64,000 bases of DNA from assembly GCF_902170785.1 (NCBI RefSeq), contig NZ_CABHYG010000017.1:62001-126000 (forward strand), in the 5' to 3' direction. Numbering within the stretch: position 1 is the stretch's first letter; each line of letters begins with the position of its first letter. The notes under the pieces were generated by a model. That model searched no databases, was not told where the DNA came from, and worked only from the letters and a program-made list of their open reading frames with translations. Source of the stretch: Yersinia proxima. GTDB lineage: Bacteria; Pseudomonadota; Gammaproteobacteria; Enterobacterales; Enterobacteriaceae. Position numbers and translations under genes: made by a program. Shown piece after piece: positions 24,791 to 33,707 of this stretch.

Positions 24791-25622
24791 GCGGCTAATG
24801 ACAATAAATCGCTCTCCGCTGAAATGGGCCGGTTCAAAGGCTCGCATTATGCCAACCTTACTTCAACATTTGCCAACCGGTAAACGATTGGTAGAACCGT
24901 TTGCTGGTTCCTGTTCTGTGATGCTGAATACGGATTATGATGAATATCTGATAACAGATATCAATGATGATCTGATTAACTTCTATGAAGTCGCCAAAAG
25001 AGAAACGAGCGACTTAATCAATGTGGCTTCCTCACTGTTTCTTACGGCTAATTCCGACGAACAATATTATATTTTCCGCAAAATATTTAATGCACGAAAC
25101 CGTGATGATATATCCAGAGCAGCAATCTTCCTTTATCTTAATCGCCATTGTTTTAATGGTATTTGTCGCTATAACCAACAAGGGCAATTTAACGTCCCCT
25201 ATGGCAAATACAAAGCACCTTATTTCCCCGAAGCCGAGATCCGTTTCTTTGCTGAAAAAGCCAAGAAAGCGACTTTCTTATGTTGTGATTTCTCCGAAGC
25301 ACTGGAAATGGCTGTTGCGGGTGATGTGATTTATTGCGATCCGCCTTATATCCCAGTCTCCAGCACTGCTGACTTTACCCATTATCACACCGATGGTTTT
25401 AGCGCTGATCAGCAATTTCGTTTAGCCCGCCTACTGGCAAGGGCCGCTGAAAATGGCTGTCATGTTGTTGCCTCCAATAGCGATACCTCTATCAGTCGCG
25501 ATCTCTATAGCCGTTTCACCCTCCACTCGATTACGGCTCCGCGCTCTATCAGTTGTAAAAGTGATGGCAGAAAAAGTATCGGGGAAATTATTGCGACAAT
25601 TCCGGCGCAATTATATGACTGA
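24783..25622 (+). CDS. dam: Dam, phage DNA adenine methylase
   Basis: 279 residues, D12-class N6-adenine methyltransferase: SAM motif PLKWAGSKARI (residues 12-22), VEPFAGSC, and catalytic DPPY (CDPPYIPVS). GATC specificity is inferred from family resemblance. P2-like phages of enterobacteria often carry dam at this place next to gene A. An ATG five codons downstream is an alternative start. Overlaps gene A by 8 nt. Confidence 0.9.
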   Translation: MSKRLMTINRSPLKWAGSKARIMPTLLQHLPTGKRLVEPFAGSCSVMLNTDYDEYLITDINDDLINFYEVAKRETSDLINVASSLFLTANSDEQYYIFRKIFNARNRDDISRAAIFLYLNRHCFNGICRYNQQGQFNVPYGKYKAPYFPEAEIRFFAEKAKKATFLCCDFSEALEMAVAGDVIYCDPPYIPVSSTADFTHYHTDGFSADQQFRLARLLARAAENGCHVVASNSDTSISRDLYSRFTLHSITAPRSISCKSDGRKSIGEIIATIPAQLYD

Positions 25623-28239
25623 GCATGCCCGTGGCCGCATCATCCCAACATCACCGCTGCCTTATCCAGGCAACGGTGATGTTTCTATTGAATGGGAGCA
25701 CTCATGGAATGCCCCGCGCCCAGCCATTGGTGGCTACCAATCTTTAGCGCCGGTCGCAGTGGTAGTAAAACCAAAATCTCACCCGCTGGTTATTCGCTAT
25801 GTGAAGCGGCTGAATGCATTGGGGTATACAGAATTACGGGAGCCTAACCAGACATTACTTAAAATGCGCAGGGAGCGCGCTGAGCTGGAGCGCGAGATCT
25901 ATTTGCGTGATAAGCAACAATGGGCGGATTCACCGCAAGGCGTAGAGGCTCGTATTGATCAGCAACCTATTTTTATTAAATCGCATTTTCAAAATAAAAT
26001 TAGATGGTTACGTGAAAATCATGGCGATAAACATACCAATGCATTCTTAACCGGCACCGGCAAGAATGCATTGCTACGTCTGGATGCTGTGCGCGAATAT
26101 CAGGGTGTGAGCAAGGGCCGTAAATCTGAGTTAATGGCTTATTTTCAGGGCATCTATAGCCACCTTGCCGAACTGAATAAACGCCGGGTTAAATCACTGG
26201 CAAATGATATTGCTGGCCGCATTAATGAAATGTTCTGCACCGAGGTATCCACGCCCACCGAAGAAACCCGCAATTTATCTGATGCCGAGTTATTAACCAT
26301 TTATCGCAATATTGCGCTTGAAGTGTGGTCTTTGCGCGTCAGGCCGTCGCACTGGCGTGAATTGGGGTCGAAGCCCGGCCACCAGGATCAGCCCGTAGAC
26401 CGCGCCACCTTTTACTCCGCTATTGCCAGATTGATTAATGCCGATTGGTGGGAGCGTAAATTGTGGCGGTTGCGTAATGATTGGCGAGAAAGTCAGTTGC
26501 GCGCCGCTGGCTTGATCCATAAGCGTGCCGCACCTTATGTCAGTAAAGAGGCATTGGCCGACTGGATAGAGCAAAAACGCCGCAATCGTGAATTTTTTAA
26601 ACGACATGAATTAGTTGATGATGAGGGCAACACCGTTTCTTTAGAGGCAATGGTGGATGCCAGTATCAGCAATCCGACTATTCGCCGTCATGAGTTGATG
26701 GCGCGCATGAAAGGGATCGAACTGGTTGCTCAGTCGCGTGATGATGTGGGTATGTTCTATACCATTACTTGCCCGTCTAAATACCACGCCAACAACCAAA
26801 GCGGCCACGCTAACCCGAAATGGAACTACACCACGCCGTCACAAGCGCAAGCCTATCTCACCAAGTTATGGAGAAACATTACTTCAAAATTGGGTAGGGA
26901 AAATCTGCGCGTCTACGGTTTTCGTGTGGCTGAGCCGCATCATGACAGTACACCGCACTGGCACTTATTGTTATTTATGAAACCGCAAGAGTGCCACGCG
27001 ATCACCGAAATTATGCGCGCCTACGCTGTCAAAACTGATCGCGCCGAATTAGGTAAGCGCACCAGCGCCCGATTTACCGCTAAACGGCTGGATCCGAAGA
27101 TAGGCAGCGCCACCGCCTATATCGCTAAATACATCAGTAAAAATATTGATGGTTACGCGCTGGATGGCGAATTAGACCATGAAACTGGCAAGCCGCTGAA
27201 AGAAACGGCTCGTTTTGCTATGGCCTGGGCATCTCGCCACCGTATCCGCCAATATCAGCCCATAGGCACGCCGCCGGTGACTGTCTGGCGGGAGTTGCGC
27301 AAGCTGAATAACCAGCTACTCAATGATCTGATTAAATCAGATGAATTTAAGTTAGCCATACAGCGCCTGATAGATAAAAAAACCGACCCCGCAGACATTG
27401 CAGCGAAAGTAGCCGCCATGCGAGGGAAAAAGCTATTACTTGATCCGGCAATGGATGCGGTTATGTCGGCGGCTGATGTCAGTTGTTTTGCTACCTATAT
27501 CATGCAGCAGGGTGGCGTCTTAATTCCCCGCGAAGAGTACACCGTGCGCATTGCCTGGCAGGACAATGAACAGCCCAACGCCTACGGCGAAATCACCGAG
27601 AAGATTTTCGGTATCTATTCCCCGCTTTTGGGCGAGGCGTCGCGCATCTGTACTCGCCTAAAAACTTGGAAGATTGTCGCCCGCCAAAAGGTGAAACCCG
27701 CCGTTGCCGTGGGGTTTGATGTTTTTCAGGACGGCTCCGCCGTCCCTTGGAGTTCTGTCAATAACTCTCCGGTAGAGCAAAAAATAGTCGAACCGGAGGA
27801 GGCCATAGACAGAACATTAGAAGAAAAAACAATCGATTTCACCGCACTCACCGATGCAGAACGCCGGACCTTACTGCGCAGGATTAAAAACGCGCCGGTA
27901 GCAACGATTAAAACTAATCCATTGACGCCAGCCGAGGAATTATCACGCCAGGTATCAGCCGAAAAGGCCGCCCAGCGGCAAGAAAAAACCGTACAACTGG
28001 CACCAGTGACAACAAAAATCCGCGATTTTGCCGAGTCAATCGGGCTTTCCATTAGCAAGCAGCAAGCGCAATCACTGGCTTGTGGCGCAACGTTGACCAT
28101 CAGCGGCCAGAACTGGCGGGCAAGAGAGGATTGTTGTTTGTACCAGTGCCAACCAACCACCGCCCAGCGGGTATTTAGCGTCATGAGCCGGGTGGCGAAA
28201 TTACGAGAGGGAGTAAACCGTGAAAGTCACCAATATTAA
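25615..28239 (+). CDS. A: GpA, rolling-circle replication initiator endonuclease
   Basis: 874 residues, larger than P2 A (761). HUH-type nuclease: H448-W-H450 (TPHWHLLLF) and a pair of catalytic tyrosines Y502 and Y506 (YIAKYIS), the two-Tyr arrangement of P2 A. It nicks the phage origin, which in P2 lies inside A, and starts rolling-circle replication. The start at 25615 (MTEHARG) is chosen because the frame further upstream lies inside dam. The C-terminal 100 residues are variable. Confidence 0.93.
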   Translation: MTEHARGRIIPTSPLPYPGNGDVSIEWEHSWNAPRPAIGGYQSLAPVAVVVKPKSHPLVIRYVKRLNALGYTELREPNQTLLKMRRERAELEREIYLRDKQQWADSPQGVEARIDQQPIFIKSHFQNKIRWLRENHGDKHTNAFLTGTGKNALLRLDAVREYQGVSKGRKSELMAYFQGIYSHLAELNKRRVKSLANDIAGRINEMFCTEVSTPTEETRNLSDAELLTIYRNIALEVWSLRVRPSHWRELGSKPGHQDQPVDRATFYSAIARLINADWWERKLWRLRNDWRESQLRAAGLIHKRAAPYVSKEALADWIEQKRRNREFFKRHELVDDEGNTVSLEAMVDASISNPTIRRHELMARMKGIELVAQSRDDVGMFYTITCPSKYHANNQSGHANPKWNYTTPSQAQAYLTKLWRNITSKLGRENLRVYGFRVAEPHHDSTPHWHLLLFMKPQECHAITEIMRAYAVKTDRAELGKRTSARFTAKRLDPKIGSATAYIAKYISKNIDGYALDGELDHETGKPLKETARFAMAWASRHRIRQYQPIGTPPVTVWRELRKLNNQLLNDLIKSDEFKLAIQRLIDKKTDPADIAAKVAAMRGKKLLLDPAMDAVMSAADVSCFATYIMQQGGVLIPREEYTVRIAWQDNEQPNAYGEITEKIFGIYSPLLGEASRICTRLKTWKIVARQKVKPAVAVGFDVFQDGSAVPWSSVNNSPVEQKIVEPEEAIDRTLEEKTIDFTALTDAERRTLLRRIKNAPVATIKTNPLTPAEELSRQVSAEKAAQRQEKTVQLAPVTTKIRDFAESIGLSISKQQAQSLACGATLTISGQNWRAREDCCLYQCQPTTAQRVFSVMSRVAKLREGVNRESHQY

Positions 28240-28450
28240 TTGCACCGACACCCTTTGCATATTGTCAGCCGATGAACAGCGAGTTGCTCAAATGCTTGGC
28301 GATGCATGGAACCAATATTTACAGCTTTCGATTGAACACCCCTGTGAACGTGATGAGTTCTGCCGGGCAATCCACGCCTGTCAGGGCATTGTATTGGCTC
28401 GTCCGGCAATTCGTGGGCTGGCTGAAAAAGGGCAGGGATATAAAAAATAG
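28220..28450 (+). CDS. small phage protein, unknown
   Basis: 76 residues, overlapping the end of A by 20 nt; a GAGAGGG site lies before the ATG. It has three cysteines (CTDTLC, PCERDEFC, HACQG) but no clear metal-site spacing. Function not recognised. Confidence 0.6.
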   Translation: MKVTNINCTDTLCILSADEQRVAQMLGDAWNQYLQLSIEHPCERDEFCRAIHACQGIVLARPAIRGLAEKGQGYKK

Positions 28451-28473
28451 CCATATCTTATTAGGAGAATGAA

Positions 28474-28794
28474 ATGCTCAAAGCAGATATTCAGTTTTTA
28501 TTTGATGAAGAAATGGAACGCCGCAGAGTTGAAATGGTTACAGTTAGAGCTGTTTGTTTCGTCAATAGCTACCTTGCGGCTCGGTTAGTCTTTGGCGACT
28601 TTAAAAACCAAACCCTAAAATTTCATGAGAATGGCATTGTCGATGTTTTTGCAGAAATCGCATTGCTTCACCGGATTGCGGCGTTAAAAACATTTAAAGA
28701 AGATGAGGAAAGCTATAAACATTTCACCTCAAAAATAGAAATTATTGGCCTGGGGCGCTGGTATTCAAATCGATTTATACGGATTAAATTTTAA
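28474..28794 (+). CDS. phage protein, unknown
   Basis: 106 residues, preceded by AGGAG at 8 nt. No recognised domain. In the early operon after A. Confidence 0.6.
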   Translation: MLKADIQFLFDEEMERRRVEMVTVRAVCFVNSYLAARLVFGDFKNQTLKFHENGIVDVFAEIALLHRIAALKTFKEDEESYKHFTSKIEIIGLGRWYSNRFIRIKF

Positions 28795-28807
28795 AAGGTG
28801 TCTGATT

Positions 28808-29152
28808 ATGACAGCAGCAAGTGACCGTAAACGCGCCCAGCGCCAGCGCGATAAAGAGTTAGGCATCACCGAGCTTACTTTGCGTATAGATACCGCAGAA
28901 ATGGCAATGTTTTTGGAGGGTTGCGAACAGCGCCGCATTGCTCGCGGGCCTTATGAGCGGGCTGAATATTTGCTAGGTTTGCTCCGGCAGGACAATAAAT
29001 TGCTACACAAACAGCTTAATGAGTTGAGGAAAGGTAGTTGTAAGCGGTGCGGTGACACATTGCCGGGTGATAAGGCTGGTTGCTGTTTGCAGGGGGACAC
29101 GGAGTGTTGGCAGACGTTGGGGTATAAGAAACTGATGTTGGATACAATTTAG
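28808..29152 (+). CDS. RHH-like phage protein with Cys-rich tail
   Basis: 114 residues. N-terminus SDRKRAQRQRDKELGITELTL resembles DNA-binding strand-helix proteins; the C-terminus has CKRC, CC and C spaced as in a small zinc-binding knuckle. AAGG lies 9 nt before the ATG at 28808. The last codons (YKKLML-DTI) are repeated at 31280 as YKKLML-KNL-stop in frame, so the 3' end has apparently been rebuilt by the neighbouring cargo insertion. Confidence 0.7.
   Translation: MTAASDRKRAQRQRDKELGITELTLRIDTAEMAMFLEGCEQRRIARGPYERAEYLLGLLRQDNKLLHKQLNELRKGSCKRCGDTLPGDKAGCCLQGDTECWQTLGYKKLMLDTI
29123..29139 (+). repeat. 17-bp direct repeat, left copy (end of the RHH-like gene)
   Basis: TATAAGAAACTGATGTT, identical to 31280-31296. 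It encodes YKKLML at the end of the gene at 28808. Confidence 0.85.
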
Positions 29153-29169
29153 CTGACTGATAATTATAT

Positions 29170-29196
29170 AAAAAGCCACATATTTTTATTGTGGCT
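29170..29196 (-). terminator. terminator of the two-gene cargo
   Basis: Stem AGCCACA / TGTGGCT, 9-nt loop. On the minus strand it is followed by TTTTTATA, so it ends the leftward transcript of the cargo genes. Confidence 0.6.
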
Positions 29197-29279
29197 CATA
29201 GACGACAATCAGGTCATGTTTGAAGTGGCACATATTATCCACAATCTAGTAGCCCTTTACACACGATAACTAACACTTT

Positions 29280-30227
29280 TTAGTCATGCCATGATTTGAA
29301 CGTGTACCGTTTTTTCGCATCTTGTTCTGACATTCCTATGTAAGTTGAAAACTTTGAAAAATCTGGTTTGATTATAGGCTCCAAGCATTTCAAATATGAT
29401 TCCTGCTTATTCCCATAGGTTGGAATTCCTCCCCACTCTCTGATCCTGCTTAACTCAATATTACTCGTAGCAATGGCGGGAAACTCTAACAGGAAGTGAT
29501 GAAACTCAACTATCAGATTGTCTATAAGTGCGATAGAAGATTCTGTTATGTGCACATATTCGCTACAAAGTTTGCGGCCAAGAATAATCTGGAACTTTTC
29601 AGGCGTTAATTTATTATCATCAAGAGGAATCTTTTCTTTAACTTGTTCACTCAATTCATTTCTGAACCGAAGCATGCCCATTGCCTCGTTATAGTTACCG
29701 AACATAGTGCTAACTCTAACGCTGTTTCTCCATGTTTTCCTCAGCTCTTCGGGGGATGGAGTTTTGACCTTCATCTTCAAGATGTGATGCTTGATTTTCC
29801 ATGTGATAGACTCAAAGCATGTTTTGTTTGCTGTAGGTATGGATCGTATAAAATATAGACCGTTAGTGCCGAATGTTACATCCTCAAACTTGGTAACTAT
29901 CGTAGCGAAAGCTATAGCTCTTGCTAGCGGTTCATCGCTATCAATGTCAATATAGTTGTTCTTGATAGAAACCAAGCGATTGATACAGTCTTGTGCAAGA
30001 GCTACGGCCTGTATGGATGTAAAAAGATTATCTCTGGCGATTCTTTGCAGCCCCTGTATTTTGTTGATATATACGGCAGATAAGCCCCCAAAAAAGGCTG
30101 AACCGAACGCTAACGCTACAGGAAAAAGATAATCTTTCGCATAGTCGGTTGTAGGCCGAAGTGACTCGATAGCTTCAACTATCGCATCAGTATTTTGGTT
30201 CATCATGAGGAAGTCTGTAATGGTCAT
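29280..30227 (-). CDS. cargo protein with one N-terminal transmembrane segment, unknown
   Basis: 315 residues. One hydrophobic span at about residues 31-53 (LFPVALAFGSAFFGGLSAVYI), the rest soluble and helical. No recognised domain. It is the second gene of a leftward pair, 34 bp after the DUF2971 gene, and sits in the P2 tin/orf91 position between A and Q. AT-richer than the phage genes. A membrane effector or anchor for its partner is possible but not shown by the sequence. Confidence 0.7.
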   Translation of the reverse strand: MTITDFLMMNQNTDAIVEAIESLRPTTDYAKDYLFPVALAFGSAFFGGLSAVYINKIQGLQRIARDNLFTSIQAVALAQDCINRLVSIKNNYIDIDSDEPLARAIAFATIVTKFEDVTFGTNGLYFIRSIPTANKTCFESITWKIKHHILKMKVKTPSPEELRKTWRNSVRVSTMFGNYNEAMGMLRFRNELSEQVKEKIPLDDNKLTPEKFQIILGRKLCSEYVHITESSIALIDNLIVEFHHFLLEFPAIATSNIELSRIREWGGIPTYGNKQESYLKCLEPIIKPDFSKFSTYIGMSEQDAKKRYTFKSWHD

Positions 30228-30261
30228 AGTCGATCCGTAGCTAAGTAAATTAAAAACGTAT

Positions 30262-31128
30262 CTAAGAAGTTTGGTAATCTAATCCTATCGTATAACTATC
30301 ATTTGATAGCTTTGTCCTGCAAATTTTCTTTATTCCCAATTCTTTTGCAATTGATAATAAAAACTTAACTTGATAATTAGGCATTTTTTCACCAATGCAA
30401 AGTAATTCAATATGCTCAGGACTGTACTTGAAAAGCCTGTTCCCCTCCATTGAGATATATCTAACTTCTTGCTCATACTCCCAGTCTTTATTTTTAGATG
30501 AAGTTAACTTACCAATATGTTTAAACACCTTAAGTTGGTTTTTTTCGACATAAAGCTGGTTAGATAACTCAACTAAATTAACAACAGGATAATCATTTAT
30601 ATAATCTATTTTATATGGCCCAGAAATTATTTCTTTTTTTAGCTCGCTATTTACATCACAGAATATGTCATCTCTAAATTTCAATGCAAACCCACGAAGG
30701 CCGTTACCGTAATGTCCCCACATAAGTCTACTTGTTAAAGGGCTTAGCGAATCGTCAGATGGATTTCCATCAGAAACAAAGCAGCAAGCTCCGCCATTTG
30801 TGTAGCTCTCAACAACAGTATTAAAGGCATGCCTAGCTATTCTAAGAATTTCATTCTTAAGTGTTTCACCTTTATTCAGTATCATTATTTTTGCGAGTGC
30901 ATCTAATGTTTCATTAGAGTTTTTTAAATTCAGAAACCTATTCAACTCTCCTGATGAATTCATAGCTTTAATCAATTTAACCATATTAGAATCTGTCAAT
31001 TCTCCATCTATTATTTTAACCTGACCCTCAAACGGATCATTGAAATCGCAGACCTTTGAAAACCAGAGAGAAGAATTATATAAGGAGGATAGAGAATTAT
31101 CATTTAAAGTGAAAAATTTATATAGCAT
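30262..31128 (-). CDS. DUF2971-domain cargo protein
   Basis: 288 residues. DUF2971 signature segments: LYKFFTLNDNSL at the start, DFNDPFEGQ (28-36), RLMWGHYGNGLRGFALKF (134-151) and KDWEYEQEVRYI (214-225). The biochemical function of the family is unknown to me; members recur in defence islands and on phages. First gene of the leftward pair, in AT-rich DNA, bracketed by the 17-bp repeat. No strong ribosome site before the ATG. Confidence 0.8.
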   Translation of the reverse strand: MLYKFFTLNDNSLSSLYNSSLWFSKVCDFNDPFEGQVKIIDGELTDSNMVKLIKAMNSSGELNRFLNLKNSNETLDALAKIMILNKGETLKNEILRIARHAFNTVVESYTNGGACCFVSDGNPSDDSLSPLTSRLMWGHYGNGLRGFALKFRDDIFCDVNSELKKEIISGPYKIDYINDYPVVNLVELSNQLYVEKNQLKVFKHIGKLTSSKNKDWEYEQEVRYISMEGNRLFKYSPEHIELLCIGEKMPNYQVKFLLSIAKELGIKKICRTKLSNDSYTIGLDYQTS

Positions 31129-31279
31129 TCTGCCGTCTTAGCCTTTAAGTATTCAATTTTTATGTACATGCTACACAAGGATGAAGATAAATCACACAAT
31201 AACAATGTGTTTTTGAGGCTAAAGAGGTTTGAGCTGCTTCTTTTAAGCGTTGTAGCTCATGAGTATATAGACGCAAAAC

Positions 31280-31296
31280 TATAAGAAACTGATGTT
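31280..31296 (+). repeat. 17-bp direct repeat, right copy
   Basis: TATAAGAAACTGATGTT followed by AAAAAACCTATAG: in the frame of the gene at 28808 this reads YKKLML-KNL-stop. It looks like the original 3' end of that gene, separated from it by 2.1 kb of cargo. Confidence 0.8.
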
Positions 31297-31428
31297 AAAA
31301 AACCTATAGCGGGTGCTGATAGTGTACCACGGCAATATTGGATAAGATATTAAAATGAATAGATATGCGTCAATTTGAATAGAATAAAAATCACATCTAA
31401 TTTACGCCCCAAATTACCCCACACAAAA

Positions 31429-31461
31429 GCGCCTCTACACTACACAGAGAGGCGCGTTTTT
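31429..31461 (+). terminator. rho-independent terminator of the early operon
   Basis: Perfect 8-bp stem GCGCCTCT / AGAGGCGC followed by GTTTTTATTT. Downstream of the right copy of the 17-bp repeat; before the cargo came in it would have ended the A operon. Confidence 0.75.
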
Positions 31462-31576
31462 ATTTCACCTCTCATAGCGAATCGTTTCGAGCCAAAAGGC
31501 AGGGTGCCGCACATGCATTCAGGGGGTGATTTCGGGCATATATGAAAAGGATTGAAGCACCGCTCACACCTCTTTC

Positions 31577-31601
31577 CGCGCGCCCCCCCGCCCGCGCTTT
31601 G
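31577..31601. other. candidate cos core
   Basis: A very GC-rich inverted repeat (GCGCG ... CGCGC around a C7 run) in AT-rich surroundings. Position fits P2 cos, and the minus strand has a GGCGGGG-rich stretch plus GGAAAG as in P2 cohesive ends, but in the opposite orientation. Tentative. Confidence 0.3.
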
Positions 31602-31807
31602 TGTGACTAAATATTCAGTTTTTATGCAGTTAGAAAGAGGCTAAAAACCCAGTATTGGCGCGGCTTAGATAATAATTAAGGGGTGAATAGAATCATACGG
31701 ATTGTTGCGGTATGAACTTGCAGGGTTGTGGTAGTCAGCTTACTAAACATTTTGAGCAATTATAACTAATTTTCGCGGTGGCCGTTGCGGCTTGCTCTTT
31801 TAAAATC

Positions 31808-31853
31808 GTGACATGGCACAAAAACAAAATCAAGAGCCTTGTGACATGTCACA
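31808..31853. promoter_or_regulatory. tandem palindromes upstream of the 31972 gene
   Basis: GTGACATGGCACA (31808-31820) and perfect palindrome TGTGACATGTCACA (31840-31853), 33 bp apart, with a further half TGTGACA at 31873. The arms resemble Ogr-box halves (TTGTGCCA / TGGCACAA) but without the 4-bp centre. Candidate operator for a regulator. Confidence 0.45.
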
Positions 31854-31971
31854 GTCATTAATAATTCTAAAGTGTGACAACGATCTTTAACTGATAGATC
31901 CATCTCTATAAACAGAGGTATGCGTAAAATTAAAAGTATAAAATATTTACAACTAACAACATTTACAAGTG

Positions 31972-32694
31972 ATGAAAAAGATTATGACTCTCGTGATAGC
32001 GATTATAACTGTGCTTTTGGGAACAATTTTACCTTTCTTCGTTTACCGACATTCTGTATGGAGAGATAAATATAAATTAGATATTGAATTAATAGCAGAG
32101 CATGAAAAAAATCCATGCAACAAATATCTTGTTGAGAAATTATTTTTCTGGCTAACAAAATGTCCGAATGTCACATTAGATGAAATTAACGCGTTATTAA
32201 ACTCAAAGCACCCGTCGAGGTCAGTAATGTCGTTTGAAAGCGCCAGACGTTTTTTAGTTACTTGTCATGTAATTAATGAAAGTTTAGCTATCTATGCTGA
32301 TGGGTATAAATCTAAAAAAGATAGGGGTAGAAAGAGAATGATGTATACATTTTTGTATATCATCTGTTGTGCCGTGCCTGTAATTGCATATACATTAATA
32401 AGCAAAAGCCCAATAGTGACAAGCAGTAATTTTTCACATTCAAACCTAACCCTAATTAAAGAGATTGGAAGCATTGTAATAAGTTTGTTAATTTCATTGC
32501 TTTTTATTGCGATGGCATTTCGCGGTTTATCAATCAGTGACAGCATTAATAGGACTGAAAAATTTATTGAGTACTTTAATAATCAACCCAATGAAATTAA
32601 CAATCCTAGTGCTAACGAACCATCTATTAGCTCAGTGCCGAGTGACGAAGCTCATACTGATCAGTTATTGCCCGCAGAAACTAACAACTCATAG
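31972..32694 (+). CDS. membrane cargo protein between cos region and Q, unknown
   Basis: 240 residues: one N-terminal span (about residues 4-25), a soluble middle of about 95 residues, then two spans (about 123-146 and 165-188) and a Ser/Asn/Glu-rich tail. AT-rich. Runs convergent to Q and overlaps its 3' end by 34 bp. In the place of P2 old/tin; exclusion or defence is inferred from place only. Start is either GTG 31969 or ATG 31972; neither has a good ribosome site. Confidence 0.65.
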   Translation: MKKIMTLVIAIITVLLGTILPFFVYRHSVWRDKYKLDIELIAEHEKNPCNKYLVEKLFFWLTKCPNVTLDEINALLNSKHPSRSVMSFESARRFLVTCHVINESLAIYADGYKSKKDRGRKRMMYTFLYIICCAVPVIAYTLISKSPIVTSSNFSHSNLTLIKEIGSIVISLLISLLFIAMAFRGLSISDSINRTEKFIEYFNNQPNEINNPSANEPSISSVPSDEAHTDQLLPAETNNS

Positions 32695-33707
32695 GGCTTG
32701 AATCTGATAACTTCCTCACCAACCCAGTCATTAATTTCCATCAGCCGTTCTTGCAGGGGGGCCAGTTCGTTAATGGCAAATACACGCGCGGCTTTCTCTA
32801 CATCGCCAAAACCGCCGGTGTTGTTGGGTAAAATACCCATCAATTGCGGCGGTACTCGCTGCATGGCGAGCTGGTCGTCGCGGGTGACGTTCTTAATACT
32901 GGCGAACTCATCTTTCGCCGCCACTTCTGCCAGTGGGATCACCTGTATGCCGTCTTTTTTACCGGCGGGGGCGTACATAAACAGATTGCGGAAATTGCCT
33001 GGCCCTTTGGACTCTTTCAGTGCTTTGCGTAAGGCGTCAATATCTTCCTGTTTATGGGCGGCATCGTTCATATACAGAATAAATCCGGCGTGACTGCCAT
33101 TCAGGTAATATTTGCGGCGAAATAGTGTGGCGGCCTCATTGAGCCAGGTCGAGTTTAGCGAGGCGAGATATTCAGGAACGCCATACATTTCCTGATTAAT
33201 ATCTGGGTCTAGCAGGTGAAAAACGCTGTTGGCTTCAAAGGGGTGTGGATTGGCATAGGATGAGACATACCAATAGGTGTCTGCCTCCACGCCTCGGCGG
33301 GTGTATTTTGCCGGGCTGGGAACCAGTTTCATGATGCCGCCCAACCGGTTATAGCGGGCCTCTAAAAACGAGTTAGCGAATACCAAAAAATCCAGCGCAT
33401 AGCGGCTAAAATCCTGCTTTGATAGCAGGCGGTGCGGCTCAAACAGGCTAACCAGTACATTACGTTTCATATAGATAGGCGAGCTGTGATGCACCGCCGC
33501 GCGAAAGGATTTAGCCAGGCCATTGAACGATACCGGCGGCTCATACCAGCGATCCATTACTGCACATTCGAGATAATCCAGAATATCGCGCTGATCCATC
33601 ATCGGGATCGGGTCGTCAAACGTAAACGCCTCGGCTTGTGGGGTGCTATTGCTCGCCATAGCTGTTGTCACCTTGGCCGAGCGGCTTTTCCTGTTGCGTT
33701 TACTCAT
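32661..33707 (-). CDS. Q: GpQ, portal protein
   Basis: 348 residues, P2 Q family (PBSX-type portal): MDQRDILDYLECAVMDRWYEPP near the start and the NTGGFGDVEKAARVFAINEL segment late. Forms the dodecameric portal through which DNA is packed. ATG overlaps the P stop by 1 nt. Confidence 0.96.
   Translation of the reverse strand: MSKRNRKSRSAKVTTAMASNSTPQAEAFTFDDPIPMMDQRDILDYLECAVMDRWYEPPVSFNGLAKSFRAAVHHSSPIYMKRNVLVSLFEPHRLLSKQDFSRYALDFLVFANSFLEARYNRLGGIMKLVPSPAKYTRRGVEADTYWYVSSYANPHPFEANSVFHLLDPDINQEMYGVPEYLASLNSTWLNEAATLFRRKYYLNGSHAGFILYMNDAAHKQEDIDALRKALKESKGPGNFRNLFMYAPAGKKDGIQVIPLAEVAAKDEFASIKNVTRDDQLAMQRVPPQLMGILPNNTGGFGDVEKAARVFAINELAPLQERLMEINDWVGEEVIRFKPYELLVSAGNN

What the first reader, a model, noticed from the sequence alone, without database searches (positions are those of the whole stretch)
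29123..31296. Two-gene cargo bracketed by a 17-bp direct repeat that rebuilds the 3' end of a phage gene
The last codons of the early gene at 28808 (YKKLML) are duplicated exactly at 31280-31296, where they continue in frame to another stop (KNL-stop). Everything between, a DUF2971 gene, a membrane-protein gene and their terminator, is a discrete 2.1-kb cassette. It seems to have entered at the end of the gene and supplied a new 3' end, leaving the old end stranded. This gives clear borders for a module that can be looked for in other phages.
Basis: seen in the sequence. Interest (0 to 1): 0.72.

Follow-up and report, generated by a model that had tools for sequence, protein, structure and literature searches.

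The report
Recombination scar in phage defence hotspot
A virus dormant in a Yersinia chromosome carries two probable phage-defence genes in a slot where related viruses keep other defence genes or nothing, and a leftover stump of the neighbouring gene shows how they probably got in.

Summary
The 17-bp repeat occurs twice in the genome. Nine of 49 related loci have the predicted empty site: terminator 106 nt past the 28808 gene, against 2265 here. The reading needs correcting. Empty genes end LDTL-stop; the window's KNL-stop is a decayed copy. The repeats are not the edges of a mobile unit: the 28808 gene switches from empty-phage to filled-phage sequence at 29023-29077, while the right-hand stump and spacer are empty-phage type. 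So DNA from a cargo-bearing phage probably entered an empty phage by a crossover inside the gene plus a joint at the recipient's old 3' end; L113 looks like a second such joint. The two genes are not a fixed pair: Y. frederiksenii has the DUF2971 gene and stump with another partner, and relatives of the other gene occur without DUF2971. The site is the Yersinia counterpart of the known P2 gpA-gpQ defence hotspot; relatives hold PARIS, reverse transcriptases or Abi_alpha there. The DUF2971 model weakly resembles ADP-ribosyltransferases (DarT, Tpt1). A known kind of place with an unusually readable scar; anti-phage function untested.

The parts
28808..29152 (+). 114-aa gene (phrog_536, annotated transcriptional regulator), the last conserved gene left of the hotspot; mosaic of empty-type and filled-type sequence
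   Evidence: PHROGs 1.1e-35; diagnostic sites
29023..29077 (.). Stretch that holds the left crossover (gene nt 216-270)
   Evidence: Empty-type at 29 of 33 diagnostic sites up to nt 258, filled-type at 7 of 7 from nt 270 to 311; break statistic at nt 216-221
29123..29139 (+). Left copy of the 17-bp repeat, inside the working 3' end of the gene
29153..29193 (+). Post-gene segment shared with phages that carry other cargo
   Evidence: Homology to L084 ends 44 nt past the stop, to L090 43, to L091 42
29173..29197 (-). Hairpin followed by T run at the end of the leftward cargo genes, probable terminator
   Evidence: -10.4 kcal/mol, 0 of 200 shuffles as good; not listed by the consensus scan
29280..30227 (-). 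315-aa protein (phrog_21267), probably anchored by an N-terminal membrane helix
   Evidence: PHROGs 4.4e-54; hydrophobic stretch read from sequence; model pLDDT 73.9, long helix 29-89
30262..31128 (-). 288-aa DUF2971 protein, PADLOC candidate PDC-S31
   Evidence: Pfam 1.8e-10; PDC-S31 5.7e-36; model pLDDT 90.7
31269..31309 (+). Stump: stranded, decayed 3' end of the recipient's copy of the 28808 gene; holds the right 17-bp copy 31280-31296
   Evidence: Matches the empty-type end, not the filled-type end; its first 11 bases (31269-31279) are the least certain part
31310..31421 (.). Empty-type spacer
   Evidence: 82% to empty-site L006 over window 31269-31862
31429..31455 (+). Conserved terminator hairpin, right-hand landmark of the hotspot
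   Evidence: -15.1 kcal/mol, z -4.9; found in most relatives

Best explanation
This is a filled copy of the P2-type phage hotspot between replication gene A and portal gene Q. Shown: related phages have, between the end of the 28808 gene and a conserved terminator, either nothing or one of many cargos; in the window that gene is a mosaic; the right-hand repeat is the decayed end of an empty-type gene. Inferred: in an ancestor, DNA from a cargo-bearing phage recombined into an empty phage, by a homologous crossover inside the 28808 gene (29023-29077) and a short-homology or illegitimate joint at the recipient's last codons of the same gene. The recipient's end was left as a stump (31269-31309) beside its own spacer and terminator; the 17-bp repeat is that scar. 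The DUF2971-to-stump joint was later reassorted with different left partners. The cargo is most likely two separate prophage-borne anti-phage genes, read leftward: DUF2971 as an intracellular effector (possibly ADP-ribosyltransferase-like), the other a membrane-anchored exclusion or effector protein. Their function is inferred from the site and from PADLOC's candidate list, not shown.
For: Empty site at exactly 106 nt from gene end to terminator in 9 of 49 loci and 118 nt in L055. Mosaic gene in window, L073 and L072. Stump and spacer of empty type in window, L073, L088 and L113. Same DUF2971 and right joint with another partner in Y. frederiksenii. Relatives carry known or candidate defence genes at the same place: AriA/AriB, RT-protease, PDC-S06, PDC-S20, PDC-S47/Abi_alpha. 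No tyrosine integrase or resolvase inside the hotspot of 28 records.
Against: The donor has not been found, so the order of events is inferred. Against their own left copy the right copies of L088 (11 of 17) and L113 (12 of 17) do not beat shuffled sequence (best 12 and 13); they are recognised only by their match to the empty-type end and spacer. The break statistic spreads over nt 216-270. DUF2971 has no PDB fold match by Foldseek, and I found no published test of it.
Confidence: 0.75

Rival explanations
1. Site-specific insertion: the cargo is an integrative cassette and the 17-bp repeat is the duplicated core of an attachment site at the gene's 3' end, which the element rebuilds.
For: Exact repeat at both ends; stump-bearing joints in two unrelated cargos (window type and L113) fall within about 12 bases of each other; 13 of 28 cargo groups diverge within 13 nt of the gene's stop.
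Against: No recombinase among the two cargo genes; of 28 records 24 have a tyrosine integrase match, 33 matches in all, 0 inside the hotspot; resolvase in 0 of 28. The left crossover is inside the gene body. Right borders of other cargos do not share the core. In L088 and L113 the left and right cores differ.
Confidence: 0.1
2. The empty sites are secondary: they arose by deletion between the two repeats of a filled ancestor.
For: Deletion between 17-bp direct repeats would also leave a single gene end followed by the spacer.
Against: Empty genes carry the empty-type end (GACGCAGGGG in most...GACACCCTATA) rather than the filled-type end; empties are diverse, fall in two clades and all nine have 106 nt to the terminator; the window's right copy is a decayed form of the empty end.
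Confidence: 0.07
3. Exchange through ligated cos ends, as Rousset et al. speculate for the E. coli hotspot: one joint at cos, one by homologous recombination.
For: Proposed in PMC9122126 (passage). In a few groups right homology to the window starts only at 31560-31583 (L083, L090, L100, L109, L112).
Against: The window's right joint is at 31269-31280, with recipient spacer and terminator kept between it and any cos downstream. I could not locate cos, so this is tested only in part.
Confidence: 0.08

Closest known systems
P2 gpA-gpQ defence hotspot (Rousset et al. 2022, PMC9122126; 'P2 defence hotspot #1', PMC9519451; old/tin locus of P2)
   Same: Same place between gene A and portal Q; very variable content; PARIS, reverse transcriptases and other defence genes among relatives
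   Different: Yersinia-type phages; here the left landmark is the 114-aa phrog_536 gene; a stranded gene end records the exchange. The passages I read do not describe such scars
PADLOC candidate PDC-S31 / Pfam DUF2971 (PF11185)
   Same: Profile matches 5.7e-36 and 1.8e-10
   Different: Candidate only: no activity known to me; partner genes differ between relatives
DarT (DNA) and Tpt1 (tRNA) ADP-ribosyltransferase fold
phrog_21267-type prophage genes
   Same: 92% in L073; 33-38% relatives in other prophages; 23% in E. coli phage P2_AC1; 71% DNA identity in 3 of 5426 E. coli genomes
   Different: Neighbours differ: in L125 it follows a 367-aa gene with 4-bp overlap in an island with an integrase gene; in P2_AC1 a TIR gene lies nearby

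Membership tests
P2 gpA-gpQ defence hotspot | Lies between gpA and gpQ of a P2-like phage | tested here: met
   Phage_GPA 5.4e-106 at 25453-28239; Q of phage 42.18, annotated portal vertex protein GpQ, matches the window's 32661-33707 protein at 96%
P2 gpA-gpQ defence hotspot | Content varies strongly among relatives, with empty forms | tested here: met
   28 filled cargo groups among the 47 loci compared; 9 of 49 loci empty
P2 gpA-gpQ defence hotspot | Contains known defence systems in relatives | tested here: met
   AriA 6.2e-41 and AriB 2.4e-23 in L072, RT-protease 3.1e-190 in L083
P2 gpA-gpQ defence hotspot | Adjacent to cos | tested here: inconclusive
   Cartapus cos gave no alignment above background in the window
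Integrase-borne cassette at an attachment site | Cargo encodes a site-specific recombinase | tested here: not met
   Neither cargo gene matches one; 0 of 33 integrase matches lie inside the hotspot in 28 records, resolvase 0 of 28
Integrase-borne cassette at an attachment site | Identical core at both ends of different cargos | tested here: not met
   Right copy seen in 3 of 28 groups (window type, L088, L113), in two of which left and right cores differ
PDC-S31 / DUF2971 | Profile match | tested here: met
PDC-S31 / DUF2971 | Anti-phage activity | not testable with these tools
   No assay possible; papers naming DUF2971: 1, seen as listing only
ADP-ribosyltransferase superfamily | Shared fold | tested here: inconclusive
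ADP-ribosyltransferase superfamily | Sequence-profile relation to DarT or Tpt1 | tested here: inconclusive
   hhalign P 0.22 and 0.20 against small alignments of 6 and 5 sequences; unrelated control P 0.76
ADP-ribosyltransferase superfamily | NAD+-dependent transfer activity | not testable with these tools
   Needs an assay; invariant E219, E221 and Y140 and nearly invariant H139 are suggestive only, and the motif comparison is recalled

The most novel reading that the evidence does not exclude
DUF2971, a family of unknown function found in many prophages, is an unrecognised branch of DarT/Tpt1-like ADP-ribosyltransferases that serves as a single-gene phage-defence effector carried in P2-type hotspots. 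(The companion claim, that these hotspots are turned over by a crossover in the conserved flanking gene plus a recurrent joint at its last codons, is part of the best explanation.)
Probability: 0.3. Interest if true: 0.65.

Novelty: new member of a known kind. Interest (0 to 1): 0.5.

Why it matters
P2-type hotspots are large reservoirs of phage-defence genes, but how their contents are exchanged is open: Rousset et al. only speculate about cos ends (PMC9122126, passage). Here one phage lineage seems to preserve both joints of an exchange, with the two parental types told apart base by base, and L113 looks like a second case. That makes the exchange mode testable by looking for stranded 3' ends of the flanking gene in other hotspots. 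It also gives a concrete, if weakly supported, enzymatic hypothesis for DUF2971.

Tried and rejected
Integrase cassette: not supported.

Two-gene defence system: not supported as a conserved pair. DUF2971 stands beside an Abi_alpha gene in L088; relatives of the 315-aa gene stand near a TIR gene (P2_AC1), after a 367-aa gene without Pfam match (L125), or among phage structural-type genes without DUF2971 (L134, L220, L221; the reading of the neighbours is by eye). Against this: a 232-aa gene beside the L090 relative looks DUF2971-like to the eye, but Pfam finds nothing, and the window's two genes are only 34 nt apart.

Locating cos by comparison with Cartapus: nothing above background. Promoter scan: 6 sites against 8.7 expected. 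Solved-structure sequence search with the DUF2971 profile: 0 at E<=1. BFVD fold search: 0 at E<=0.001. The model of the 315-aa protein (pLDDT 73.9) was not searched. DUF2971 by tblastn in the phage collection: no match. Literature: DUF2971 in 1 paper, listing only; with ADP-ribosyltransferase in 0; PF11185 in 0; seen as listings only; Odegrip 2006 not held. PMC9122126 and PMC9519451 were read as passages.

An early note says that right borders mostly stack at the terminator; on recounting this holds for 6 of 14 Yersinia-clade groups only (see full report).

Rows dropped: searches used 7 empty-type and 15 filled-type rows of the Yersinia clade; duplicates (L080-L082, L092, L111, L118-L120), L055, L056 and the second clade (L095-L110, L112, L114) were left out; L113 was kept although its first third does not align. 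One search used 44 of 45 non-redundant cargo proteins (a 116-aa piece left out), themselves from 62. One search treats L083 and L086 as one group on more than 250 bp of similarity. L052, L088 and L119 cover the same stretch and count as one case; other loci are also held in two collections, so the 49 are not all independent. Alignment A4 for the model used 31 of the relatives found.

Full report
What is there. The window lies in a genome whose nearest held relatives are Yersinia (same-genus contigs match records named Y. thracica, Y. aleksiciae, Y. frederiksenii and Y. ruckeri). Around the finding stand gene A (25453-28239, Phage_GPA 5.4e-106), a 76-aa gene, a 106-aa gene, the 114-aa gene at 28808 (phrog_536), two minus-strand cargo genes, a terminator hairpin, a 241-aa gene and portal Q on the minus strand. 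This is the order of a P2-like prophage. The repeat is real, has two places in the genome and is unlikely by chance (2 of 2000 simulations).

Empty sites. A scan of viral contigs (45 loci) and one of genome contigs (4 loci) gave relatives of the 28808 gene. In 9 of these 49 (not all independent) the terminator match starts 106 nt after the coding part of the gene: L074-L079, L099, L104 and L117 (Y. thracica). In L055, from the genus search, it starts at 118. In the window it starts at 2265. No terminator match was found in L080, L102, L115 and L116, and the matches in L089, L090 and L111 are at the edge of significance. The empty genes of the window's clade end YKKLMLDTL-stop, LDSL in L079. 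So the predicted empty site exists, while the predicted KNL-stop ending was not seen: the window's right copy has changed GGACACCC to AAAAAACC and lost two bases after the stop. Y. frederiksenii (L088) keeps a nearly intact form at the same joint.

Two parental types. The 342-nt gene was compared with 7 empty-type and 15 filled-type rows. At 42 diagnostic positions the window is empty-type at 29 of 33 up to nt 258 (2 filled-type, 2 neither), filled-type at 7 of 7 from nt 270 to 311, and empty-like at 323 and 325, where some filled phages (L003, L091) agree as well. L073 (31 of 33, then 7 of 7) and L072 (30 of 33, then 7 of 7) show the same switch. A break statistic over all consensus differences puts it at nt 216-221 in the window and L073 and 253-255 in L072, reached by 1, 0 and 0 of 2000 shuffles. 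The crossover is therefore at window 29023-29077, inside the gene. Past the stop the window continues for up to 44 nt with sequence shared by phages with other cargo. On the other side the stump (31269-31309) and the spacer up to the terminator are empty-type. The simplest history is an empty recipient, a filled donor, a homologous crossover in the gene, and a joint of donor DNA to the recipient's last codons. The repeat exists because donor and recipient both carry the end of that gene.

How general. Y. frederiksenii (L052, L088 and L119 are the same stretch) has a filled-type gene at left and the window's DUF2971 gene and stump at right (window 30244 onward, 91%), so this right joint is old and has been reassorted. 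L113 has a filled-type gene, an unrelated KAP NTPase cargo (PDC-S20) and a stump that begins within about 12 bases of the window's: on sequence, a second, independent joint. Measured against their own left copies these two stumps do not beat shuffled sequence; they are recognised because they match the empty-type end and run on into empty-type spacer. No stump was seen in the other 25 of 28 cargo groups, though in three of those (L087, L101, L102) the right flank was not found. Left borders lie within 13 nt of the stop in 13 of 28 groups and 25-129 nt past it in the other 15. Right borders scatter: in the 14 Yersinia-clade groups homology to the window starts between 31280 and 31574, six of them at 31400-31457 about the terminator; in the second clade, compared with its own empty sites, it often starts 27-67 nt past the stop, inside the spacer. 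This fits repeated exchanges bounded by a gene that must stay intact. That two joints share the same codons may mean a preferred site; two cases cannot prove it.

What it is. For E. coli, Rousset et al. (PMC9122126; passages) describe the region between gpA and gpQ as a hotspot with 1,650 gene arrangements in 18,150 loci and speculate that cos ends drive exchange. PMC9519451 (passages) calls it P2 defence hotspot #1. The Yersinia site is the same place by gene order and by content: AriA/AriB (PARIS) in L072, RT-protease in L083, PDC-S06 in L085, Abi_alpha in L088, Ppl in L003; among 44 cargo proteins Pfam also finds SMODS, NACHT, OLD-like and RelA_SpoT domains, and one transposase (25 of 35 families shown). 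L072 carries the same mosaic gene as the window but PARIS in place of DUF2971 and the 315-aa gene, so cargo seems to have been swapped within one lineage. The finding is a new member of a known kind. Its value is the preserved joint, which in this case points to a crossover in the flanking gene plus a joint at its old end, with no recombinase in the cargo; cos was not located, so its role elsewhere stays open.

Noticed in passing
window 28449-28807: The 106-aa gene 28474-28794 is a second presence/absence slot: in several relatives (for example L003, L007, L008) homology jumps from 28448 straight to 28808, while L072-L074, L076 and L117 have the gene there.
   Followed up: partly
window 31969-32694: The 241-aa gene between terminator and portal Q is also variable: relatives carry versions at 25-98% identity or other genes in that place, so a second variable slot lies right of the terminator.
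   Followed up: no
L006 788-1483: In Y. thracica a 231-aa gene that looks to the eye like a DNA methylase stands between gene A and the 76-aa gene; not scanned.
   Followed up: no
L092 8399-9250 and 9511-10056: The Y. ruckeri-type cargo has two neighbouring DUF2971-like genes (4.4e-12; the second 0.0015, below Pfam's cut-off). In L053 the first is split into shorter frames.
   Followed up: partly
L062 (G000:C13) and L064 (G000:C10): The window's own genome holds two further loci with P2-like genes, so recombination between co-resident P2-like phages is possible.
   Followed up: no
L056 (G017:C5) and L113 8001-8329: The flanking 28808-type gene is broken in G017 (stops inside) and changes frame in L113 (two tblastn pieces), so it may be dispensable in some prophages.
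   Followed up: no
window 31349-31372: A short AT-rich motif (AAAATGAATAGATATGCGT) in the spacer is kept in the empty sites and resembles a stretch of the second-clade spacer, near where many second-clade right borders start.
   Followed up: no
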